Positions 466 through 6,494 of a stretch of DNA of 6,494 nucleotides are shown one piece after another. Every line of letters begins with the position of its first letter. Position 1 is the first letter of the stretch. The stretch spans positions 1 to 6,494 of the forward strand of contig JAGAAM010000137.1 in NCBI GenBank assembly GCA_017615235.1, written 5' to 3'. The notes beneath the pieces are model-generated. The model saw nothing but the letters and a program-made list of their open reading frames with translations, searched no databases and was not told where the DNA came from. Source of the stretch: Clostridia bacterium. Its GTDB lineage: Bacteria; Bacillota_A; Clostridia; Oscillospirales; CAG-382. The position numbers and the translations under genes were made by a program.

Positions 466-2922
466 ATGAAACGGTTTTTGCCTCTGCTCGTCGCCGCCGT
501 GCTGCTTGTTACGGCGTTACCTTTAAATATTTCTGCGGAGGATGATATGTTCACTACCGTCACTTTGGAATATACGGGCATAAACACGACCCGCGTCGAG
601 AACAGCCTCATCATTTACCGGGACCGCGCGACTACCGGCACCAACACCTGGGGCTACGAGGTCGTCTGCGATAACGAAGGCACCGTCATCGCCGTAGGTG
701 GTAACAACAGCGCCATCCCGGAAGGCGGTTTCGTACTTTCGGCGATAGGCACCAGGAAGCAGCCGCTCATCGACGCGTCCGAACTCGGCATGACCGTCGT
801 GATCCACGAGGAATCGCGCACCTTCACGATAGGCTTCGTCAGGGAAAACATCGGCAAAAAATACCAGGTCTTCATCAACACCTACCGCGAAAAATATATA
901 CAGAACCTCACCGAACTGCGCGATTTTGACGTCACTGCCGTCGAACGCGATTTTGAGGAACTCAGCGCTATAAAAGACGAGATCGTTTCCGCAGTCAACG
1001 CTTCGAACGACGCGCTTCTAAAAACGAAAGACGCCGAATTTACGCAGAAATGCAAAAAACTTTCCGACGATCTCGTGATAAGCACACCCGTCGAAGCGCG
1101 CACGCTCTGGCTCCGCATCATGACGAGCAAGAGCGAGAAGGTCGTCGAATCCACCGTCCAGCAGATCGTACGGTTCGGTTTCAACAGCGTATGCATCGAG
1201 GCGCTTTTCGACAACACGATGATCGTCCCGATGCCGGAGGGCAGCCTTTTCGAGCAGAATCCGGCTTTCGGCGGCGTCGATATGCTCAAGCTTTATATCG
1301 ACGAATTCCATAAATACGGAATCGAAGTCCACCTCTGGATGTCCTGCTACCGCGTCGGTTATAAAGGAACGAGCAACACCTCCCGTTCGGTCGGAATGAA
1401 AAAACCGGAATGGCGCTGCAAAGGGCTTTCCGGCACCGACGTCGTCAAAAACGAATACGGCGACGCCTTCTTCCTCAATCCCGCTCTGCCGGAAGTGAAA
1501 GAGTTTTTGCTGGACACCTACCGCTATTTCCTTGAAAATTACGATATCGACGGATTCCAGCTCGATTACGTCCGTTATCCCGAAGTATCCGGCGAGGTCT
1601 TCGGTTACGACGACTATACGAAATCGGAATTCCTGAAAGCGACCGGACTTTCGGCGGTACCGACCAATTCCTCCCAGCGCGGCTGGAACGATTGGACTGA
1701 ATTCCGCGCCGCCTACGTCACCGACCTTGTCGAATCCGTCAAAGAAATGATCGACGAGATAAGACCCGACGTCTGGTTCTCCTGCGACGTCGCGCCGGCG
1801 ACGCTTTCCTCGCTCCCGCCCACCACCTGTCAGGATACGAAGACCTGGACCGACGGTTGCACGGTTGACATAATCTACCCGATGGCTTACGGCACCACCG
1901 ACGGCGTGAAGAGGTGGACCGCCGAAACGCTCGCCCTTTGCGACGAATACGTTTACTCGGTGATGGGACTGCGCGACAACGGTCACGAAATATTCGCGGA
2001 ACAGGTGCAGGAGTGCCGCAGGGCGGGCGCCTCCGGAAGCGCGTTTTTCTCGTATTCTCAATATATCGATGGCGGTTATATCGGCAAGATCGACAAGACG
2101 GTATACGCGAGATCCGCCGTGAATCCGACGTCTAACGCGAAGGCGGCGCTTATCGCCCAGCTCGAATTCGCCTCCGCGAAACTCGGCAATTTCAACACGT
2201 TGAGGCAGAAGGCGTACTCGCTCGATCCGGTTTACAATAATCTTGATGTCGAGGACGTCCGCGACACCGTTTCCACCAAGGCGGCGGAGGAGATAAACAG
2301 GGTCATAAAGAAGCTCAAAAACTCCTCCGTGAAGGCGATGAGCAAGGACCTCAGATCGCTCTCGTCGAAACTCGAAGAACTTTCCGGTAAGATCAAATAC
2401 GCCGACGGGGAATTCAAGGTCATGCGCCGGTTCCAGGAGGGCTTGCGCGATTTCCTTAAAGAAAACGCGCACTTCATCAACCTTCTGGTGAACACGAGCA
2501 AGGATTACGAAAAAGCGGTCTATAACGGCGAGATCGTCGAACCGGACGAATCCTCTCAGGATGATACCGGAACTTCCGAAAGCGCTCCGGAAACGAGCGG
2601 ATCCGCCGAAAGCGAACCCTCAGCCGATACTTCCGAAACGGTTTCGGAAGAAAGCGAACCGATCGAAAGCGAGCCGGTCGAAAGCGTTGACGAAAGTCAA
2701 GCCGAATCTTCGCCCGCCGAAAGCGGGGAAGAAAGCGCCCCCGGGAACAGCGTCGAAGACAGCGCCGTCGGACCCGAAAGCAAACCCGAAGGATCTCAGC
2801 CGCCGGAAGGCGGAAAAGGCAATCATCTTTTCGGTATGATCGCATTGATAGTCGCCGCCGTATCGCTGCTGGTATTCGTTCCGCTCGTAATATACGGCTT
2901 CCGCAAACGCGGCAAGAAATAA
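466..2922 (+). CDS. Secreted, membrane-anchored GHL10 (DUF187) family glycosyl hydrolase
   Basis: The start ATG follows GGGAGG (455-460) by 5 bases. Residues 1-24 form a signal peptide (MKRF, a hydrophobic core, then ISA before the likely cut). A beta-rich domain follows at about 28-125, with GTNTWGYEVV (58-67) and IPEGGFVLSAIG (84-95), then a helical connector. The GHL10 barrel spans about 207-545. It carries EARTLWLR near 210, HLWMSCYRVG (289-298), the hallmark DGFQLDYVRYP (362-372), WFSCDVAP (437-444) and DIIYPMAYG (468-476). A helical region (about 560-690) leads to an acidic Ser/Glu/Pro-rich linker of about 90 residues, one transmembrane helix (about 790-811) and a basic tail ending RKRGKK. 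No LPxTG sorting signal is present. The catalytic part should therefore lie outside the membrane, tethered by the C-terminus. A characterised relative, E. coli DigH (YddW), cleaves peptide-free peptidoglycan strands; the same substrate here is inference. The gene is monocistronic, with its own promoter and terminator. Confidence 0.9.
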   Translation: MKRFLPLLVAAVLLVTALPLNISAEDDMFTTVTLEYTGINTTRVENSLIIYRDRATTGTNTWGYEVVCDNEGTVIAVGGNNSAIPEGGFVLSAIGTRKQPLIDASELGMTVVIHEESRTFTIGFVRENIGKKYQVFINTYREKYIQNLTELRDFDVTAVERDFEELSAIKDEIVSAVNASNDALLKTKDAEFTQKCKKLSDDLVISTPVEARTLWLRIMTSKSEKVVESTVQQIVRFGFNSVCIEALFDNTMIVPMPEGSLFEQNPAFGGVDMLKLYIDEFHKYGIEVHLWMSCYRVGYKGTSNTSRSVGMKKPEWRCKGLSGTDVVKNEYGDAFFLNPALPEVKEFLLDTYRYFLENYDIDGFQLDYVRYPEVSGEVFGYDDYTKSEFLKATGLSAVPTNSSQRGWNDWTEFRAAYVTDLVESVKEMIDEIRPDVWFSCDVAPATLSSLPPTTCQDTKTWTDGCTVDIIYPMAYGTTDGVKRWTAETLALCDEYVYSVMGLRDNGHEIFAEQVQECRRAGASGSAFFSYSQYIDGGYIGKIDKTVYARSAVNPTSNAKAALIAQLEFASAKLGNFNTLRQKAYSLDPVYNNLDVEDVRDTVSTKAAEEINRVIKKLKNSSVKAMSKDLRSLSSKLEELSGKIKYADGEFKVMRRFQEGLRDFLKENAHFINLLVNTSKDYEKAVYNGEIVEPDESSQDDTGTSESAPETSGSAESEPSADTSETVSEESEPIESEPVESVDESQAESSPAESGEESAPGNSVEDSAVGPESKPEGSQPPEGGKGNHLFGMIALIVAAVSLLVFVPLVIYGFRKRGKK

Positions 2923-2930
2923 GCAAATAT

Positions 2931-2970
2931 AAAAAAAGACCTCCTGCACCAGAATGCAGGAGGTTTTTTT
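2931..2970. terminator. Bidirectional rho-independent terminator between convergent genes
   Basis: A 9-bp GC-rich stem (2940-2948 with 2955-2963, CCTCCTGCA/TGCAGGAGG) and a 6-base loop are flanked by seven A residues (2931-2937) and seven T residues (2964-2970). It therefore works as a stem plus T-run on both strands. It lies 8 bp after the GHL10 stop and its T-run touches the ung stop codon (2970-2972 on the plus strand), so it ends both transcripts. Confidence 0.92.
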
Positions 2971-3644
2971 CAATCTATCTTCCAGTCGATCTCCGGAAGC
3001 CCGTTTTCTTTCAAAAAGTTGTTGCACTTCGAGAAATGGCGGCAGCCGAAGAACCCGTTGTAAGCCGAAAGCGGGCTCGGGTGGGCGGCTTCCAGCACAA
3101 GGTGCGCCGGGTTGGTGATAAGGCCTTTCTTCGCCCTTGCGAACCCTCCCCAAAGCAGGAAGACTATCGGCTTTTCGCGCTCGTTCAACAGCTCGATAGC
3201 CCGGTCGGTGAATATCTCCCAACCCTTGCCGCGGTGGCTCCCCGCGAGGCCTTCGCGCACGGTGAGCACACTGTTGAGGAGCATAACGCCGTTTTTCGCC
3301 CACTGCGTAAGCTCGCCGTGGTTCGGCGGCATTATCCCCAGGTCGTCCCGGAGTTCTTTAAAAATATTCACCAGCGAAGGCGGAGCCTGGACTCCCTTTT
3401 TCACCGAAAAGCAAAGTCCGTGCGCCTGACCGTATCCGTGATAAGGGTCCTGACCGAGGATAACGGCGCGGACGTCGCCGTAATCGGTATATTTAAAGGC
3501 GTTGAAAATATCGTACATATCCGGGAAAATGCGTACTCCGGAGCGTTTGTATTCATCCGCCAGAAAAGCGCGGAGTTTTTTGTAATAATCCTTTTCCGCC
3601 TCCGGCGCCATAAGCGCGTCCCAGGAATTGCCGAAACTGAACAT
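2970..3644 (-). CDS. ung: Uracil-DNA glycosylase, family 1
   Basis: This is a 224-residue enzyme, the usual length for bacterial Ung. It removes uracil from DNA to start base excision repair. The diagnostic motifs are all present: GQDPYHG (64-70) with the water-activating Asp66; Phe79, which stacks on uracil, in GLCFSV; APPSL (87-91); LLNSVLTV (122-129) with the uracil-reading Asn124; and the DNA-intercalation loop HPSPLSA (188-194) with catalytic His188, followed by [10 protein letters not shown] chose the start at 3644 because AGGAGG (3657-3652) precedes it by 7 bases and [11 protein letters not shown] is a normal family N-terminus. A longer reading to 3743 would add 33 untypical residues encoded by the AT-rich promoter region. 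The gene is transcribed alone, divergently from mgtE, and converges on the GHL10 gene at a shared terminator. Confidence 0.97.
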
Positions 3645-3666
3645 CAGACCGCCTCCTTTTTTAAAG

Positions 3667-3695
3667 ATTATAACATTTATGTTATAAAAAATCAA
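3667..3695 (-). promoter_or_regulatory. Promoter of ung
   Basis: Reading the minus strand, TTGATT (3695-3690, 4 of 6) is followed after 17 bp by a perfect TATAAT (3672-3667). The expected transcript start near 3660 leaves an untranslated leader of only about 16 bases, barely room for the ribosome binding site at 3657-3652. Confidence 0.65.
3668..3687. repeat. Perfect inverted repeat over the ung -10 box; possible operator
   Basis: TTATAACAT-TT-ATGTTATAA is a perfect palindrome with 9-bp arms and a 2-bp centre. It overlaps most of the ung -10 hexamer and nearly all of the spacer. Because there is no T-run and the site lies at or upstream of the probable transcript start, a terminator is unlikely. 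The placement suits a dimeric repressor. No regulator is encoded in the window. AT-rich promoter DNA can form such palindromes by chance, though 9-bp arms make this less likely. Confidence 0.5.
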
Positions 3696-3714
3696 GAAAA
3701 ACGAAAATACTTCG

Positions 3715-3743
3715 TTGACAAAACCGCTTTTTGGGTATATCAT
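3715..3743 (+). promoter_or_regulatory. Sigma-A-type promoter for the mgtE leader and downstream genes
   Basis: A perfect TTGACA (3715-3720), a 17-bp spacer and TATCAT (3738-3743, 5 of 6) form a strong plus-strand promoter. Transcription from about 3750 would give a leader of roughly 200 bases before the mgtE start codon, long enough for the structured element described below. It is divergent from the ung promoter, with 19 bp between the two -35 boxes. Confidence 0.7.
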
Positions 3744-3770
3744 TAACCTGTATTTTTGTTTTCACAAAGA

Positions 3771-3776
3771 TATAAT
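3771..3776 (+). promoter_or_regulatory. Possible second -10 box upstream of the mgtE leader
   Basis: AGATATAATA contains a perfect TATAAT, but the bases 16-18 bp upstream (around 3747-3754) do not resemble a -35 box. If used, transcription would start near 3783, still upstream of the small ORF and of the whole folded leader. It could also be chance in AT-rich DNA. Confidence 0.25.
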
Positions 3777-3803
3777 ACAAAAACGATTGCAGAGGTGAAT
3801 TTT

Positions 3804-3890
3804 ATGGATACCGGACGAAGTAGCGGCATAAAACCCAAAAGTACGTGCGCGGACCCGGCGTTTGTAAGGTTCGCCCCGTTCGCGTTATAA
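3804..3890 (+). CDS. 28-residue candidate leader peptide upstream of mgtE
   Basis: An ATG preceded at 5 bases by GAGGTGA (3792-3798) opens a 28-codon frame ending at TAA 3888-3890. The peptide starts MDTGRSSGIKPKSTCADPAF and ends VRFAPFAL: basic in the middle, with three prolines and one cysteine, and no signal peptide or membrane segment. I do not recognise it. Its ribosome binding site is as good as those of the real genes here, and it lies fully within the mgtE leader, 63 bp before mgtE. The ORF covers the 5' strand of the leader's closing helix, so translating it would change the fold. Leader peptides that sense magnesium are known for other transporters (mgtL before Salmonella mgtA); a similar role here is inference. 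It may instead be a chance frame in a structured RNA. Confidence 0.45.
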   Translation: MDTGRSSGIKPKSTCADPAFVRFAPFAL

Positions 3891-3915
3891 AACCTTTTCG
3901 GGTTGTGCCGTTCTT
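3818..3915 (+). ncRNA. Structured 5' leader RNA domain of mgtE (possible riboswitch or attenuator)
   Basis: Long-range pairing closes a folded domain. AAG (3818-3820) and AGCGGCA (3822-3828) pair with TGCCGTTCTT (3906-3915): 10 bp with one bulged T and one G-T wobble. After a small internal loop, AACCC (3832-3836) pairs with GGGTT (3900-3904). Inside, AAGGTT (3866-3871) pairs with AACCTT (3891-3896), and a weaker hairpin is possible at 3843-3861, giving a junction-like fold. I compared it by eye with the M-box magnesium riboswitch. Only AGGTGA and TATGGATAC resemble it, and the conserved core is absent. It lies directly upstream of a magnesium transporter, behind a strong promoter. The pairings are read by eye, without energy calculation or comparative support. 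Confidence 0.5.
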
Positions 3916-3952
3916 GCCAGTTTTTATGAATCCAAAAGAAAAGGAGAACGGT
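3907..3952 (+). promoter_or_regulatory. Hairpin that can hide the mgtE ribosome binding site
   Basis: CCGTTCT (3908-3914) is perfectly complementary to AGAACGG (3945-3951), and G-T wobbles extend the helix to 3907-3915/3944-3952. The downstream strand takes in part of the Shine-Dalgarno AAGGAG (3941-3946) and the spacer up to two bases before the mgtE ATG. The upstream strand is the same one used to close the leader domain (3906-3915), so the two structures exclude each other. CCTTTT (3893-3898) could additionally pair with AAAAGG (3939-3944). Together these suggest control of mgtE at translation start. Confidence 0.5.
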
Positions 3953-3953
3953 C

Positions 3954-5330
3954 ATGAATGAAGAAACCATCACCAACGAAGCGATAGCCGAGGAGATCGA
4001 GGAATCGATAAAAAACAAAAAATACCCGGAGATCCGCAGGCTGTTAGCCGATATCGAACCGCAGGATATCGCGATAATCTTTGAAAGTCTTCCGGAAGAG
4101 ATAATGCCCGTCGTCTTCCGCCTGCTGCCGAAGACCACGGCGGCGGACTGCTTCTCGGAGATGTCCACCGACGTCCAGGAAATGCTTATCCGCCGTTTCA
4201 GCGACGCCGAACTTAAAAACATACTCGACGAGATGTATATCGACGATACCGTCGACGTCATCGAGGAAATGCCGGCGAACGTCGTCAAAAGGATCCTCGC
4301 CAACTGCGACAGCGAATCCCGCCAGCAGATAAACGATATTTTAAAATATCCGAAAGACTCTGCCGGAAGCATAATGACGGTGGAATACGTCCGCCTCGAT
4401 AAGAATATGACCATTGAGGACGCTTTCGCACGGATAAGGCGTACCGGCACGGATAAGGAGACTATCTATACCTGCTACGTCACCGAATCCGACAAAACGC
4501 TCGTAGGCGTCGTTACCGCGATGGACCTTATGCTCAACGACACCGATAAACTCATATCCGAAATAATGGATACCAACGTGATCTCCGTCACCACCGACGA
4601 GGATAAAGAGCAGGTCGCTTCCAAAATGAGCAAATACGACTTCCTCGCGATCCCGGTCGTCGACGTCGACAATCACCTTGTCGGTATCGTCACGTTCGAC
4701 GATGCAATCGACGTCATCCAGGAAGTGGAGACGGAAGATATTACCAAGATGGCGGCTTTCACGCCGACCGACAAGCCTTATTTCAAGACCGGCGTGTTTT
4801 CCATCTGGCTGTCGAGTATCCCCTGGCTTATGCTTTTAATGCTTTCCGCCACCTTCACGGGCGCGATAATATCGCATTACGAACTCGCTTTAAGCCACGT
4901 CATCATACTTACGTCGTTCATCCCGATGCTTATGGACACCGCCGGCAACGCCGGAGGACAGGCGTCGGTCACGATAATCCGTGCGATCTCGCTCGGCGAA
5001 GTGGAACCGAAAGACGTACTTCGCGTCGTCTGGAAAGAATTCCGCGTTTCCTTCCTCTGCGGCGTTTCGCTCGCCGCCGTCGGCTTCGGCAAAGCCGTGC
5101 TGGTCGATAAAGCGCCGCCTATGGTCGCTTTGGTCGTCTGCCTCACTCTCGCAACGACGGTCGTCGCCGCGAAGATAGTCGGCTGCTGTATGCCTCTGCT
5201 CATCAAAAGGCTCAAATTCGACCCGGCTGTCGTCGCAAGTCCTTTCATCACCACGATAGTCGACGCGCTTTCTCTTTTAGTCTATTTCGCAATAGCCTCC
5301 GCGATCCTTCCGGAACTGGCAAATATATAA
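3954..5330 (+). CDS. mgtE: Magnesium channel/transporter MgtE
   Basis: This 458-residue protein is close in length to Thermus MgtE. It carries magnesium inward across the cell membrane as a dimer whose cytoplasmic part senses magnesium and closes the pore. The domains are in the usual order. A helical acidic MgtE-N domain (about 20-130) contains IFESLPEEIMPVVFRLLP. Tandem CBS domains (about 135-260) include SAGSIMT (136-142), IMDTNVISVTTDED and VGIVTFDDAIDVI (243-255). Five membrane helices follow from about 280. The membrane part shows the conserved MDTAGNAGGQAS (327-338) and TTIVDALSLLVYF (433-445), where Asp437 matches the pore Asp of the family. The start follows AAGGAG (3941-3946) by 7 bases. 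No terminator is seen between it and the alpha-galactosidase gene 27 bp downstream. Expression is probably controlled by the folded leader upstream. Confidence 0.97.
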   Translation: MNEETITNEAIAEEIEESIKNKKYPEIRRLLADIEPQDIAIIFESLPEEIMPVVFRLLPKTTAADCFSEMSTDVQEMLIRRFSDAELKNILDEMYIDDTVDVIEEMPANVVKRILANCDSESRQQINDILKYPKDSAGSIMTVEYVRLDKNMTIEDAFARIRRTGTDKETIYTCYVTESDKTLVGVVTAMDLMLNDTDKLISEIMDTNVISVTTDEDKEQVASKMSKYDFLAIPVVDVDNHLVGIVTFDDAIDVIQEVETEDITKMAAFTPTDKPYFKTGVFSIWLSSIPWLMLLMLSATFTGAIISHYELALSHVIILTSFIPMLMDTAGNAGGQASVTIIRAISLGEVEPKDVLRVVWKEFRVSFLCGVSLAAVGFGKAVLVDKAPPMVALVVCLTLATTVVAAKIVGCCMPLLIKRLKFDPAVVASPFITTIVDALSLLVYFAIASAILPELANI

Positions 5331-5357: not shown

Positions 5358-6494
5358 ATGGCGATCATTTTCGACAAAACCAACGGTCAGTATTCTCTCC
5401 ATACCGCTAACACGAGCTATATAATGCAGGAAAAGGAAGGCTTTCTCCTTCACCTTTACTGGGGCAAAAAGCTTGGCGGCGACTGCTCCTATTTCTTCCG
5501 CGAGCAGGGGCGCGCAGCCTTCTCGCCGCACATGGAGCATTGCGAGGGGTTCATCCTCGACGACGTTCCGCTCGAATATCCCTGCTGGGGCAGGGCGGAT
5601 CTCCGCACCCCCGCGCTCGAGGTGACTAACGCCGACGGATCGGTCATAATCGACCCGAGCGTCGTCGATCACCGCATAGTAAAAGGCAAGCTTTCGCCGG
5701 AAGGGCTTCCCGCAGCGTACGCGGAAAACGAAGACGAATGCGAAACGCTTATCGTCGAACTGTACGACGTCGTCAGCAACGTCAAGGTCGAACTTTACTA
5801 TTGCGTCTACGAGGAGAGGGATATTATAACCCGCTTTGCGAAGGTGTTCAACAACGGCACTTCACCGGTATATATCGACCGCGCTGCTTCCGCCTCCGTC
5901 GATTTCGACAAGGTGGATTACGACGTGATCTCCAACTTCGGCACCCATTGCCGCGAAAGGCATATCGAGCGTTCGCCCTTAAAACACGGAAGATACATTA
6001 TGTCATCCAGGCGCGGCGCTTCCTCCCACGTCCACAATCCCTTCCTGATCCTCACTTCGCCTTCGGCGGACGAAGTCAGCGGCGACGCCTACGGCTTCGT
6101 GCTCGTCTATTCCGGGTCCTTCTCCGCGGAGATAGCAGCGAACCAGTTCGACACGGCGCGCGCCGTGATCGGGCTCGACCCCGATTCCTTCCGCTGGTAC
6201 CTCGAAGCCGGCGACGTCTTCTTTACCCCGGAATGCGTTATGACCTATTCGGGCGAAGGACTGGATAAACTTTCAAACAACTTTTCTTCGCTTTTCCGCG
6301 AAAGGCTTTGCCGCGGAAAGTTCCGCGATACAAGGCGCCCGGTGCTTCTGAACAGCTGGGAAGCCTGCTATTTCGATTTTGATTCCGAAAAACTTATGAG
6401 CATAGGCGACGCCTGCGCAGATCTCGGCATCGAGCTTATGGTCATAGACGACGGATGGTTCGGCAAACGCGATAACGACCGCTGCTCGCTCGGC
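5358..6494 (+). CDS. GH36 alpha-galactosidase, N-terminal 379 residues (truncated by window end)
   Basis: The frame is open from ATG 5358, preceded at 7 bases by CAGGAG (5345-5350), to the end of the window with no stop; members of this family usually run to about 700-750 residues. GH36 enzymes release terminal alpha-1,6-galactose from raffinose, stachyose, melibiose and galactomannan. The N-terminal beta-sandwich begins MAIIFDKTNGQYSLHT and contains GFLLHLYWGKKL. The barrel begins near residue 325 with RPVLLNSWEACYFDFD, in which NSWEA is residues 332-336, then VIDDGWFGKR (362-371), whose Asp364-Asp365 bind the galactose 4- and 6-hydroxyls in this family. The nucleophile and acid/base aspartates lie beyond the window. 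No signal peptide is present, so it acts in the cytoplasm on imported oligosaccharides. The 27-bp gap from mgtE suggests a shared transcript. A short ATG at 5351 is in another frame and is not used. Confidence 0.95.
   Translation, partial: MAIIFDKTNGQYSLHTANTSYIMQEKEGFLLHLYWGKKLGGDCSYFFREQGRAAFSPHMEHCEGFILDDVPLEYPCWGRADLRTPALEVTNADGSVIIDPSVVDHRIVKGKLSPEGLPAAYAENEDECETLIVELYDVVSNVKVELYYCVYEERDIITRFAKVFNNGTSPVYIDRAASASVDFDKVDYDVISNFGTHCRERHIERSPLKHGRYIMSSRRGASSHVHNPFLILTSPSADEVSGDAYGFVLVYSGSFSAEIAANQFDTARAVIGLDPDSFRWYLEAGDVFFTPECVMTYSGEGLDKLSNNFSSLFRERLCRGKFRDTRRPVLLNSWEACYFDFDSEKLMSIGDACADLGIELMVIDDGWFGKRDNDRCSLG

What the first reader, a model, noticed from the sequence alone, without database searches (positions are those of the whole stretch)
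3818..3953. Two mutually exclusive RNA folds upstream of mgtE suggest an uncharacterised magnesium-response switch
The strand 3906-3915 (TGCCGTTCTT) can pair with 3818-3828 (10 bp, one bulge), closing a branched domain, or its 3908-3914 core can pair perfectly with 3945-3951, occluding the mgtE Shine-Dalgarno region. A single strand shared between an upstream domain and an RBS-masking hairpin is the classic layout of a translational ON/OFF switch. The downstream gene is a magnesium transporter, yet the conserved M-box (ykoK) core is not visible. The pairings are seen directly; the regulatory role and ligand are inference.
Basis: partly seen in the sequence, partly recalled or inferred. Interest (0 to 1): 0.72.

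Follow-up and report, generated by a model that had tools for sequence, protein, structure and literature searches.

The report
Leader-peptide switch for magnesium transporters
In front of a magnesium-transporter gene lies a short coding sequence whose RNA competes with the gene's ribosome-binding site for the same strand, and the same arrangement recurs before two unrelated kinds of magnesium transporter, which points to an unnamed way of controlling magnesium uptake that is read by the ribosome.

Summary
Missed was that the 5' strand of the first helix is the start of a short gene (uORF 3804-3890, MDTGRSSGIKPKS...). A uORF of this family (consensus MDAGSS-GT--GRS) precedes mgtE in 50 of 80 related loci. 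In genome searches 108 of 117 classifiable matches lie upstream of a magnesium transporter gene: 97 mgtE, 11 the unrelated ATPase gene mgtA (8 of the 108 were in the model's training set). Both helices co-vary over 99 diverged leaders (z -13.7 and -11.3; three controls between -0.75 and +1.4). Frame, stop and codon statistics show the uORF is coding; two rare codons, AGT and CGA, are strongly favoured. No Rfam, Pfam or NCBIfam family matches. Best reading: ribosomes on the early uORF keep its strand from pairing, so the anti-RBS strand masks the transporter's RBS (OFF); when uORF translation fails, as expected at low Mg2+, the long helix forms and frees the RBS (ON). The Mg2+ response and its sign are inference; nothing was tested in cells.

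The parts
3715..3743 (+). promoter-like site TTGACA-17-TATCAT; would start the leader near 3750 (inferred)
   Evidence: 11 of 12 consensus matches; a consensus match only
3791..3798 (+). Shine-Dalgarno of the uORF (AGAGGTGA)
   Evidence: sequence; an SD-like stretch is at the same place in the aligned relatives
3804..3890 (+). uORF of 28 codons plus stop, MDTGRSSGIKPKSTCADPAFVRFAPFAL; CGA is codon 5 and AGT codon 6
   Evidence: conserved N-terminus in 50 of 80 related mgtE leaders; coding statistics
3813..3841 (+). strand 1 of helix P1 (uORF codons 4-13)
   Evidence: co-variation
3894..3918 (+). strand 2 of helix P1, pairs with 3813-3841
   Evidence: co-variation
3907..3915 (+). anti-RBS strand shared by P1 and P2
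   Evidence: in relatives P1 and P2 share at least 3 bases in 117 of 128 leaders
3944..3952 (+). strand 3: end of the mgtE SD and spacer, pairs with 3907-3915 (P2)
   Evidence: co-variation
3941..3946 (+). Shine-Dalgarno of mgtE (AAGGAG)
   Evidence: sequence
3954..5330 (+). mgtE, Mg2+ transporter (MgtE_N, CBS, MgtE domains)

Best explanation
The leader is a translational attenuator read by the ribosome. Strand 1 (uORF codons about 3-16) can pair with strand 2 upstream of the transporter's RBS (P1), or strand 2 can pair with the RBS itself (P2). Supported by comparison: the uORF is coding, P1 and P2 share strand 2, both co-vary, and the arrangement belongs to Mg2+ transporter genes of two unrelated families. 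Inferred: while ribosomes sit on uORF codons about 4-15, helped by the rare codons AGT and CGA, strand 1 is not available, P2 forms and the transporter is off; when few ribosomes get that far, P1 forms and the RBS is free. Also inferred: low Mg2+ is what makes uORF translation fail, by poor initiation or by early ribosome loss after the acidic second residue (as reported for Asp2/Glu5 of Salmonella mgtQ), so low Mg2+ switches the transporter on. Confidence by step: uORF plus exclusive helices 0.95; control through uORF translation 0.8; Mg2+ as the signal with this sign about 0.6.
For: uORF in 50 of 80 mgtE leaders; the same scorer finds 4 hits at score 6 and none higher in 1.09 Mb (both strands) of the other DNA of these loci. 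Anchor RTGGAYGC in 37 of 80 leaders: AGT 58:2:3 and CGA 40:10:3 in frames 0,1,2; 53 stop triplets, none in frame. CGA is 58% of Arg codons in codons 2-17 against 5% in the downstream genes, AGT 65% of Ser against 9%. P1 z -13.7 and P2 z -11.3 over 99 diverged leaders, three controls between -0.75 and +1.4; spacer-only P2 z 5.0 by energy, 2.9 by longest run. 108 of 117 classifiable genome matches upstream of mgtE or mgtA. Footprint scan: RBS access falls with the P site at codon index 4-14 (index 8: 26 of 96 down, 2 up) and rises at index 20 (28 up, 8 down). Window: RBS access 0.48 free, 0.25 with codons 1-15 blocked.
Against: No expression or Mg2+ data. The accessibility effect is modest and absent in many leaders: with codons 1-15 blocked 35 of 96 fall, 15 rise, 46 do not change; a ribosome at the start codon raises access slightly (37 up, 20 down). 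30 of 80 related mgtE loci show no recognisable uORF (L023 is cut by its contig end). L145 and L146 have leaders of 86-88 nt in which P1/P2 could not be tested. AGT stays favoured where its P1 partner differs, so part of the codon selection is not explained. The window's own fold is unremarkable.
Confidence: 0.6

Rival explanations
1. Same three-strand switch, but the sensor is a nascent-peptide arrest: MDAGSS-GT--GR stalls the ribosome at the CGA-AGT codons when Mg2+ is plentiful, and the stalled ribosome holds P1 open (OFF); at low Mg2+ the arrest fails and P1 forms.
For: Amino-acid selection at the N-terminus (codons 2-17: 170 synonymous against 92 expected of 353 single changes; codons 18-26: 74 against 59 of 217, pairs not independent). 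The first CGA lies at codons 11-14 in 72 of 99 leaders, inside the repressive stretch of the footprint scan.
Against: In the window CGA is codon 5, too early for the long nascent chains of typical arrest peptides (recalled); 12 of 99 leaders have no CGA in codons 5-18. No arrest was measured.
Confidence: 0.2
2. A riboswitch without a translated sensor: the RNA itself shifts between P1 and P2 with Mg2+ or another ligand, and the uORF is incidental.
For: P1 and P2 are classic expression-platform helices; long helices respond to Mg2+ in general (established knowledge).
Against: The uORF is in frame, free of in-frame stops and under amino-acid selection; Rfam finds no aptamer in the leader.
Confidence: 0.1
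3. Opposite sign: a ribosome further along the uORF, or ending it, keeps the RBS open, so good uORF translation switches the transporter on.
For: Footprints at codon index 20-26 raise computed RBS access (index 20: 28 of 96 up, 8 down); Salmonella mgtQ translation promotes mgtB (PMC8092293, passages).
Against: Footprints over codon indices 4-14, where the rare codons lie, lower it.
Confidence: 0.1
4. The peptide is a small protein that acts on the transporter, and the helices are incidental.
For: Small regulators of Mg2+ transporters exist, such as MgtR (PMC3641672, abstract in listing).
Against: Only the first 13-14 residues are conserved; lengths run from 20 to 57; the helices co-vary strongly.
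Confidence: 0.03
5. Chance pairings in one leader.
For: The window's own fold is unremarkable (z -1.53).
Against: Comparative tests.
Confidence: 0.01

Closest known systems
mgtQ of Salmonella, short ORF before mgtB (PMC8092293; passages read)
   Same: Short ORF before a Mg2+ transporter gene; alternative helices mask or free its RBS; acidic residue at position 2.
   Different: 8 codons, intergenic, no peptide similarity seen; its own strand pairs with region 2 rather than with the anti-RBS strand in our sense, and occupying it switches mgtB ON, the opposite of what is inferred here.
Leader ORFs mgtL (mgtA) and mgtM/mgtP (mgtCBR) of Salmonella (listings and abstracts PMC6460261 and PMC3641672; details recalled)
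   Same: Mg2+ transporter genes controlled through translation of leader ORFs and alternative RNA folds; mgtA is one of the genes here too.
   Different: Proline-rich leaders acting on transcription elongation or termination in enteric bacteria (recalled); here no terminator was found between uORF and mgtE on the + strand in the window and the helix masks the RBS.
M-box riboswitch (ykoK leader, RF00380)
   Same: Controls mgtE in many bacteria, including 8 of 79 scanned relatives.
   Different: No match in the window; no uORF sensor; the two devices mostly exclude each other (2 of 8 M-box loci have the uORF, 47 of 71 others).
Mycobacterial M-box with conserved uORF Rv1805A (PMC12810186; abstract and passages read)
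   Same: Conserved uORF in a magnesium-linked leader; anti-SD and anti-anti-SD strands.
   Different: Driven by an M-box; peptide reported as specific to mycobacteria.
mgtE motif SRC-65-1 (PMC11109978; passages read)
   Same: Structured leader of mgtE with the SD in a stem.
   Different: Reported only from Thioalkalivibrio, called a riboswitch candidate; no uORF is mentioned in the passage seen.

Membership tests
M-box riboswitch (RF00380) | match to the covariance model at its gathering score | tested here: not met
   no match in the window at E up to 5 nor in 3740-3960 at E up to 10
mgtL/mgtM/mgtP/mgtQ type leader ORFs | short ORF before a Mg2+ transporter gene, N-terminus conserved | tested here: met
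   50 of 80 mgtE loci; mgtA loci
mgtL/mgtM/mgtP/mgtQ type leader ORFs | alternative helices involving the ORF | tested here: met
   P1 and P2 co-vary and share a strand
mgtL/mgtM/mgtP/mgtQ type leader ORFs | same peptide family | not tested
   no alignment to the Salmonella peptides was made; by eye the consensus MDAGSS differs from the mgtQ features described except for the acidic residue 2
mgtL/mgtM/mgtP/mgtQ type leader ORFs | response to Mg2+ | not testable with these tools
   needs a reporter assay
mgtE motif SRC-65-1 | match to its alignment | not tested
any Pfam or NCBIfam peptide family | HMM match above cut-off | tested here: not met
   four uORF peptides, no match above a curated cut-off

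The most novel reading that the evidence does not exclude
A new family of sensory leader ORFs (MDAGSS type) is a magnesium gauge of Clostridia and possibly further Bacillota: the ribosome senses Mg2+ through an acidic second residue and rare, wobble-decoded codons (AGT, CGA), and its position chooses between two exclusive helices that control MgtE and, independently, MgtA.
Probability: 0.45. Interest if true: 0.85.

Novelty: new variant of a known kind. Interest (0 to 1): 0.74.

Why it matters
Magnesium control by leader ORFs is known from enteric bacteria. I found no report of one before mgtE or mgtA in Clostridia in the open-licence texts searched; the device described there is the M-box. 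A short peptide family shared by two unrelated Mg2+ transporter genes would give a ribosome-based magnesium sensor testable with a reporter of about 200 nt, and would help to explain why 71 of 79 scanned mgtE loci have no M-box. The strongly favoured rare codons make the open question of how ribosomes sense Mg2+ directly testable.

Tried and rejected
Rfam with permissive thresholds gave only sub-threshold matches: PyrR and Thr_leader on the terminator at 2934-2970 and flavi_FSE, taken as chance. A loop-E reading of AGTA/CGAA was an idea only and was not pursued. That AGT is fixed by P1 pairing alone was dropped because the opposite strand varies. Plasmid searches with two mgtA products confirmed the gene type but gave no host for the leader. 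Paper searches: MDAGSS 0 papers; the listings show no paper whose title or listed abstract describes such a uORF; find-passages in PMC11109978, PMC8632094 and PMC6429828 show none. Only open-licence PMC text was searched, supplements could not be read, and one paper I asked for was not held.

A sequence-only model (R1) was used because the distance between the strands varies: uORF start to gene start has median 160 nt, up to 559. For the same reason no pair-by-pair count on one alignment (count of structure pairs, R-scape) was made; permutation tests stand in for it.

Rows dropped before counts: one search used 49 of 51 leaders; one search dropped L004 (no SD found) and L025 (too short); one search merged 150 to 135 unique, left out loci scoring under 7 or without a transporter match and L185 (24% identity), and does not hold L190-L209; one search dropped 7 of 135 (L004, L025, L145, L146, L165, L173, L181) and tested 99 of 128 after a similarity cut; searches used 96 of these 99 (leaders over 330 nt left out). 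Rfam was run on 79 of the 80 loci (L080 not, L010 twice). Of the 120 places 9 have no transporter match and are counted as false (L150, L158, L160, L182, L200, L202, L203, L206, L207); 3 lie at contig ends (L083, L153 and G119:C1, the last not fetched). L090, found at E 0.022, has no transporter either and is outside the 120. The mgtA of L196 matches in two pieces and no open frame of 300 codons was found. The merged set and the training set were chosen with a motif score, so their codon and residue frequencies are inflated; the anchor test is the less biased one.

Full report
WHAT IS IN THE WINDOW. The window carries the end of an unassigned gene, a GHL10 protein gene (466-2922), a uracil-DNA glycosylase gene on the minus strand (2970-3743 as the longest frame), mgtE (3954-5330) and the start of a GH36 alpha-galactosidase gene (5358 on). 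No whole genome is held for it. The closest locus in genome contigs is an uncultured Clostridia bacterium with 80% identical MgtE (L001). Between the glycosylase gene and mgtE lie a promoter-like site (3715-3743) and the leader in question. Rfam finds nothing credible in the leader.

THE OBSERVATION. Both helices are there, base for base. P1: 3818-3828 with 3906-3915, part of 3813-3841 with 3894-3918. P2: 3908-3914 with 3945-3951, extendable by a G-U pair at each end. They share 3907-3915 and cannot coexist. The window's sequence alone would not show more than chance (fold z -1.53, 15 of 200 shuffles as good; P2 p 0.06).

The 5' strand of P1 is the start of a short ORF with its own Shine-Dalgarno: 3804-3890, MDTGRSSGIKPKSTCADPAFVRFAPFAL. 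The same scorer over 1.09 Mb (both strands) of the remaining DNA of these loci gives four hits at score 6 and none above. The consensus is M-D-A-G-S-S/T-x-G-T-x-x-G-R-S; the C-terminus drifts and the length runs from 20 to 57 residues.

IS IT CODING? With an anchor that does not look at the later codons (RTGGAYGC, found in 37 of 80 leaders), AGT falls 58:2:3 and CGA 40:10:3 in frames 0, 1, 2 within 54 bases, and the 53 stop triplets there are all out of frame. In the merged set of 135 unique leaders CGAAGT falls 68:1:0 and GGCAC 45:0:0 (this set was chosen with a motif score and is biased). Among 99 pairs at least 75% alike (not independent), codons 2-17 show 170 synonymous and 183 non-synonymous single changes where 92 synonymous are expected; codons 18-26 show 74 of 217 against 59. 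So the N-terminus is under amino-acid selection. Codon choice is selected too: CGA is 58% of the Arg codons in codons 2-17 against 11% later in the ORF and 5% in the downstream genes; AGT is 65% of Ser against 8% and 9%.

DO THE TWO HELICES CO-VARY? Of 135 leaders 128 were usable and 99 remain after a 70% similarity cut. I computed the duplex energy of each uORF strand with each pre-RBS block and compared own pairs with 20000 permutations. P1: own -29.46, permuted -24.13 kcal/mol (z -13.7). P2: own -12.88, permuted -10.50 (z -11.3). No permutation reached either. Controls: uORF strand with RBS z +1.4; uORF strand with a block inside the gene z -0.3; gene block with RBS z -0.75. Own pairs are seldom the single best of their row (5 and 4 of 99), as expected when relatives share strands; the median fractional ranks are 0.12 and 0.16. 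P2 is not just an anti-SD: for the spacer alone z is 5.0 by energy and 2.9 by longest run (65 of 20000 permutations as good), and at offsets 5-12 from the SD core the paired columns hold C-G, G-C, T-A and A-T in different leaders. P1 and P2 share at least 3 bases in 117 of 128 leaders. Examples of P2: GCCTTGC/GCAAGGT in L012, CCGTTCT/AGAACGG here, GTCTTAT/ATAAGAC in L174. An earlier round on the first set gave the same picture (in one search 43 of 49 pair better than the median shuffle, 14 of 49 at p below 0.05).

WHICH GENES CARRY IT? Unique places: 120. Three lie at contig ends, nine have no transporter match. The other 108 lie upstream of a magnesium transporter gene: 97 mgtE (one, L185, only 24% identical; one, L115, with mgtE about 500 nt away) and 11 mgtA (L116, L145, L146, L154, L171, L174, L196-L199, L201) (recount). 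Eight of the 97 mgtE places were in the training set; none of the mgtA places was. For L116, L145 and L154 the best NCBIfam models are the magnesium-translocating P-type ATPases NF011702 and TIGR01524 (the incomplete L116 stays below both cut-offs, the incomplete L154 below the first). For L199 and L201 most listed plasmid matches are annotated mgtA. MgtE and MgtA are unrelated proteins (established knowledge), so the shared factor is magnesium. The mgtA leaders keep the layout where it could be read: L116, L171 and L174 have P1 and P2, and L197-L199 have 14-base runs for both helices sharing six bases, although their anti-RBS strand lies about 130 nt before the start codon (at most 2 of 200 shuffles as good; L198 and L199 are near-identical). 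For L201 the P1 run is matched by 3 of 200 shuffles and the P2 run by 36 of 200, so P2 is not shown there. L145 and L146 have leaders of 86-88 nt and were not testable; L154 has two uORFs in a row.

RELATION TO THE M-BOX. Of 79 of the 80 mgtE loci scanned with Rfam, 8 have an M-box (L003, L005, L009, L016, L022, L029, L046, L063); of these only L003 and L009 also have the uORF, against 47 of the 71 others. The two devices mostly replace each other.

HOW IT MOST LIKELY WORKS. The uORF codons that most often pair with anti-RBS bases are codons 4-8. If the early uORF is occupied by a ribosome, strand 1 is not available, strand 2 is free to mask the RBS, and the transporter is off; if not, P1 forms and the RBS is open. 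Computed RBS access agrees in direction, with modest size: a 31-nt footprint with the P site at codon indices 4-14 lowers it (index 8: 26 of 96 leaders down, 2 up), at index 20 raises it (28 up, 8 down), and at the start codon raises it slightly (37 up, 20 down). Blocking codons 1-15 lowers mean access from 0.327 to 0.280 (35 down, 15 up, 46 same; Wilcoxon p 0.0008); blocking the next 45 nt instead, possible in 33 leaders, does not lower it (5 down, 14 up). For the window itself access falls from 0.48 to 0.25. The favoured rare codons lie in the repressive stretch: first AGT at codon 5 or 6 in 79 of 99, first CGA at codons 11-14 in 72 of 99. That low Mg2+ interrupts uORF translation is inference; the precedent is Salmonella mgtQ, where Asp2 and Glu5 are reported to destabilise the ribosome (PMC8092293, passages). 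Residue 2 is acidic in 132 of 135 here, a figure inflated by the selection. That AGT and CGA are wobble-decoded and slow is recalled, not tested.

WHAT SPEAKS AGAINST. There are no data on expression or magnesium. Thirty of 80 related mgtE loci have no recognisable uORF (L023 is cut by its contig end). The accessibility effect is absent in about half of the leaders. AGT stays favoured where its partner in P1 differs, so part of the codon selection is not explained by pairing. An arrest peptide, a direct RNA sensor or the opposite sign is not excluded.

WHAT IT IS CALLED. It works like the leader-ORF attenuators of enteric Mg2+ transporter genes, but I cannot file it under any of them: the layout differs and no Rfam, Pfam or NCBIfam family matches. 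It is not an M-box. I rate it a new variant of a known kind: a leader-ORF family with a three-strand RBS switch.

Noticed in passing
window 2934-2970: Hairpin CCTCCTGCA.../...TGCAGGAGG flanked by A and T runs between the converging GHL10 and uracil-DNA glycosylase genes, probably a two-way terminator; it causes the sub-threshold Thr_leader and PyrR matches.
   Followed up: no
window 466-2922: GHL10 glycosyl-hydrolase-like protein with a Ser/Glu/Pro-rich tail, a hydrophobic stretch and a basic end, as in surface-anchored proteins (read by eye; domain).
   Followed up: no
window 5358-6494: GH36 alpha-galactosidase gene 27 nt after mgtE on the same strand, perhaps co-transcribed.
   Followed up: no
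L003 2641-2797 and 2878 on; L009 2594-2748 and 2818 on: M-box and MDA..PRS uORF in tandem before mgtE: two magnesium devices in one leader.
   Followed up: partly
L154, uORFs at about 532 and 811, mgtA from 1091: Two uORFs of the family in a row before one mgtA gene.
   Followed up: no
L145, L146: Short mgtA leaders (86-88 nt) in which the uORF frame runs over the mgtA start codon; possibly a translation-coupled version. Genome G257 has a second near-identical uORF start at a contig end (L153).
   Followed up: no
L020, L027, L032: mgtE lies shortly after a tRNA gene cluster on the same strand and has neither a recognised uORF nor an M-box.
   Followed up: no
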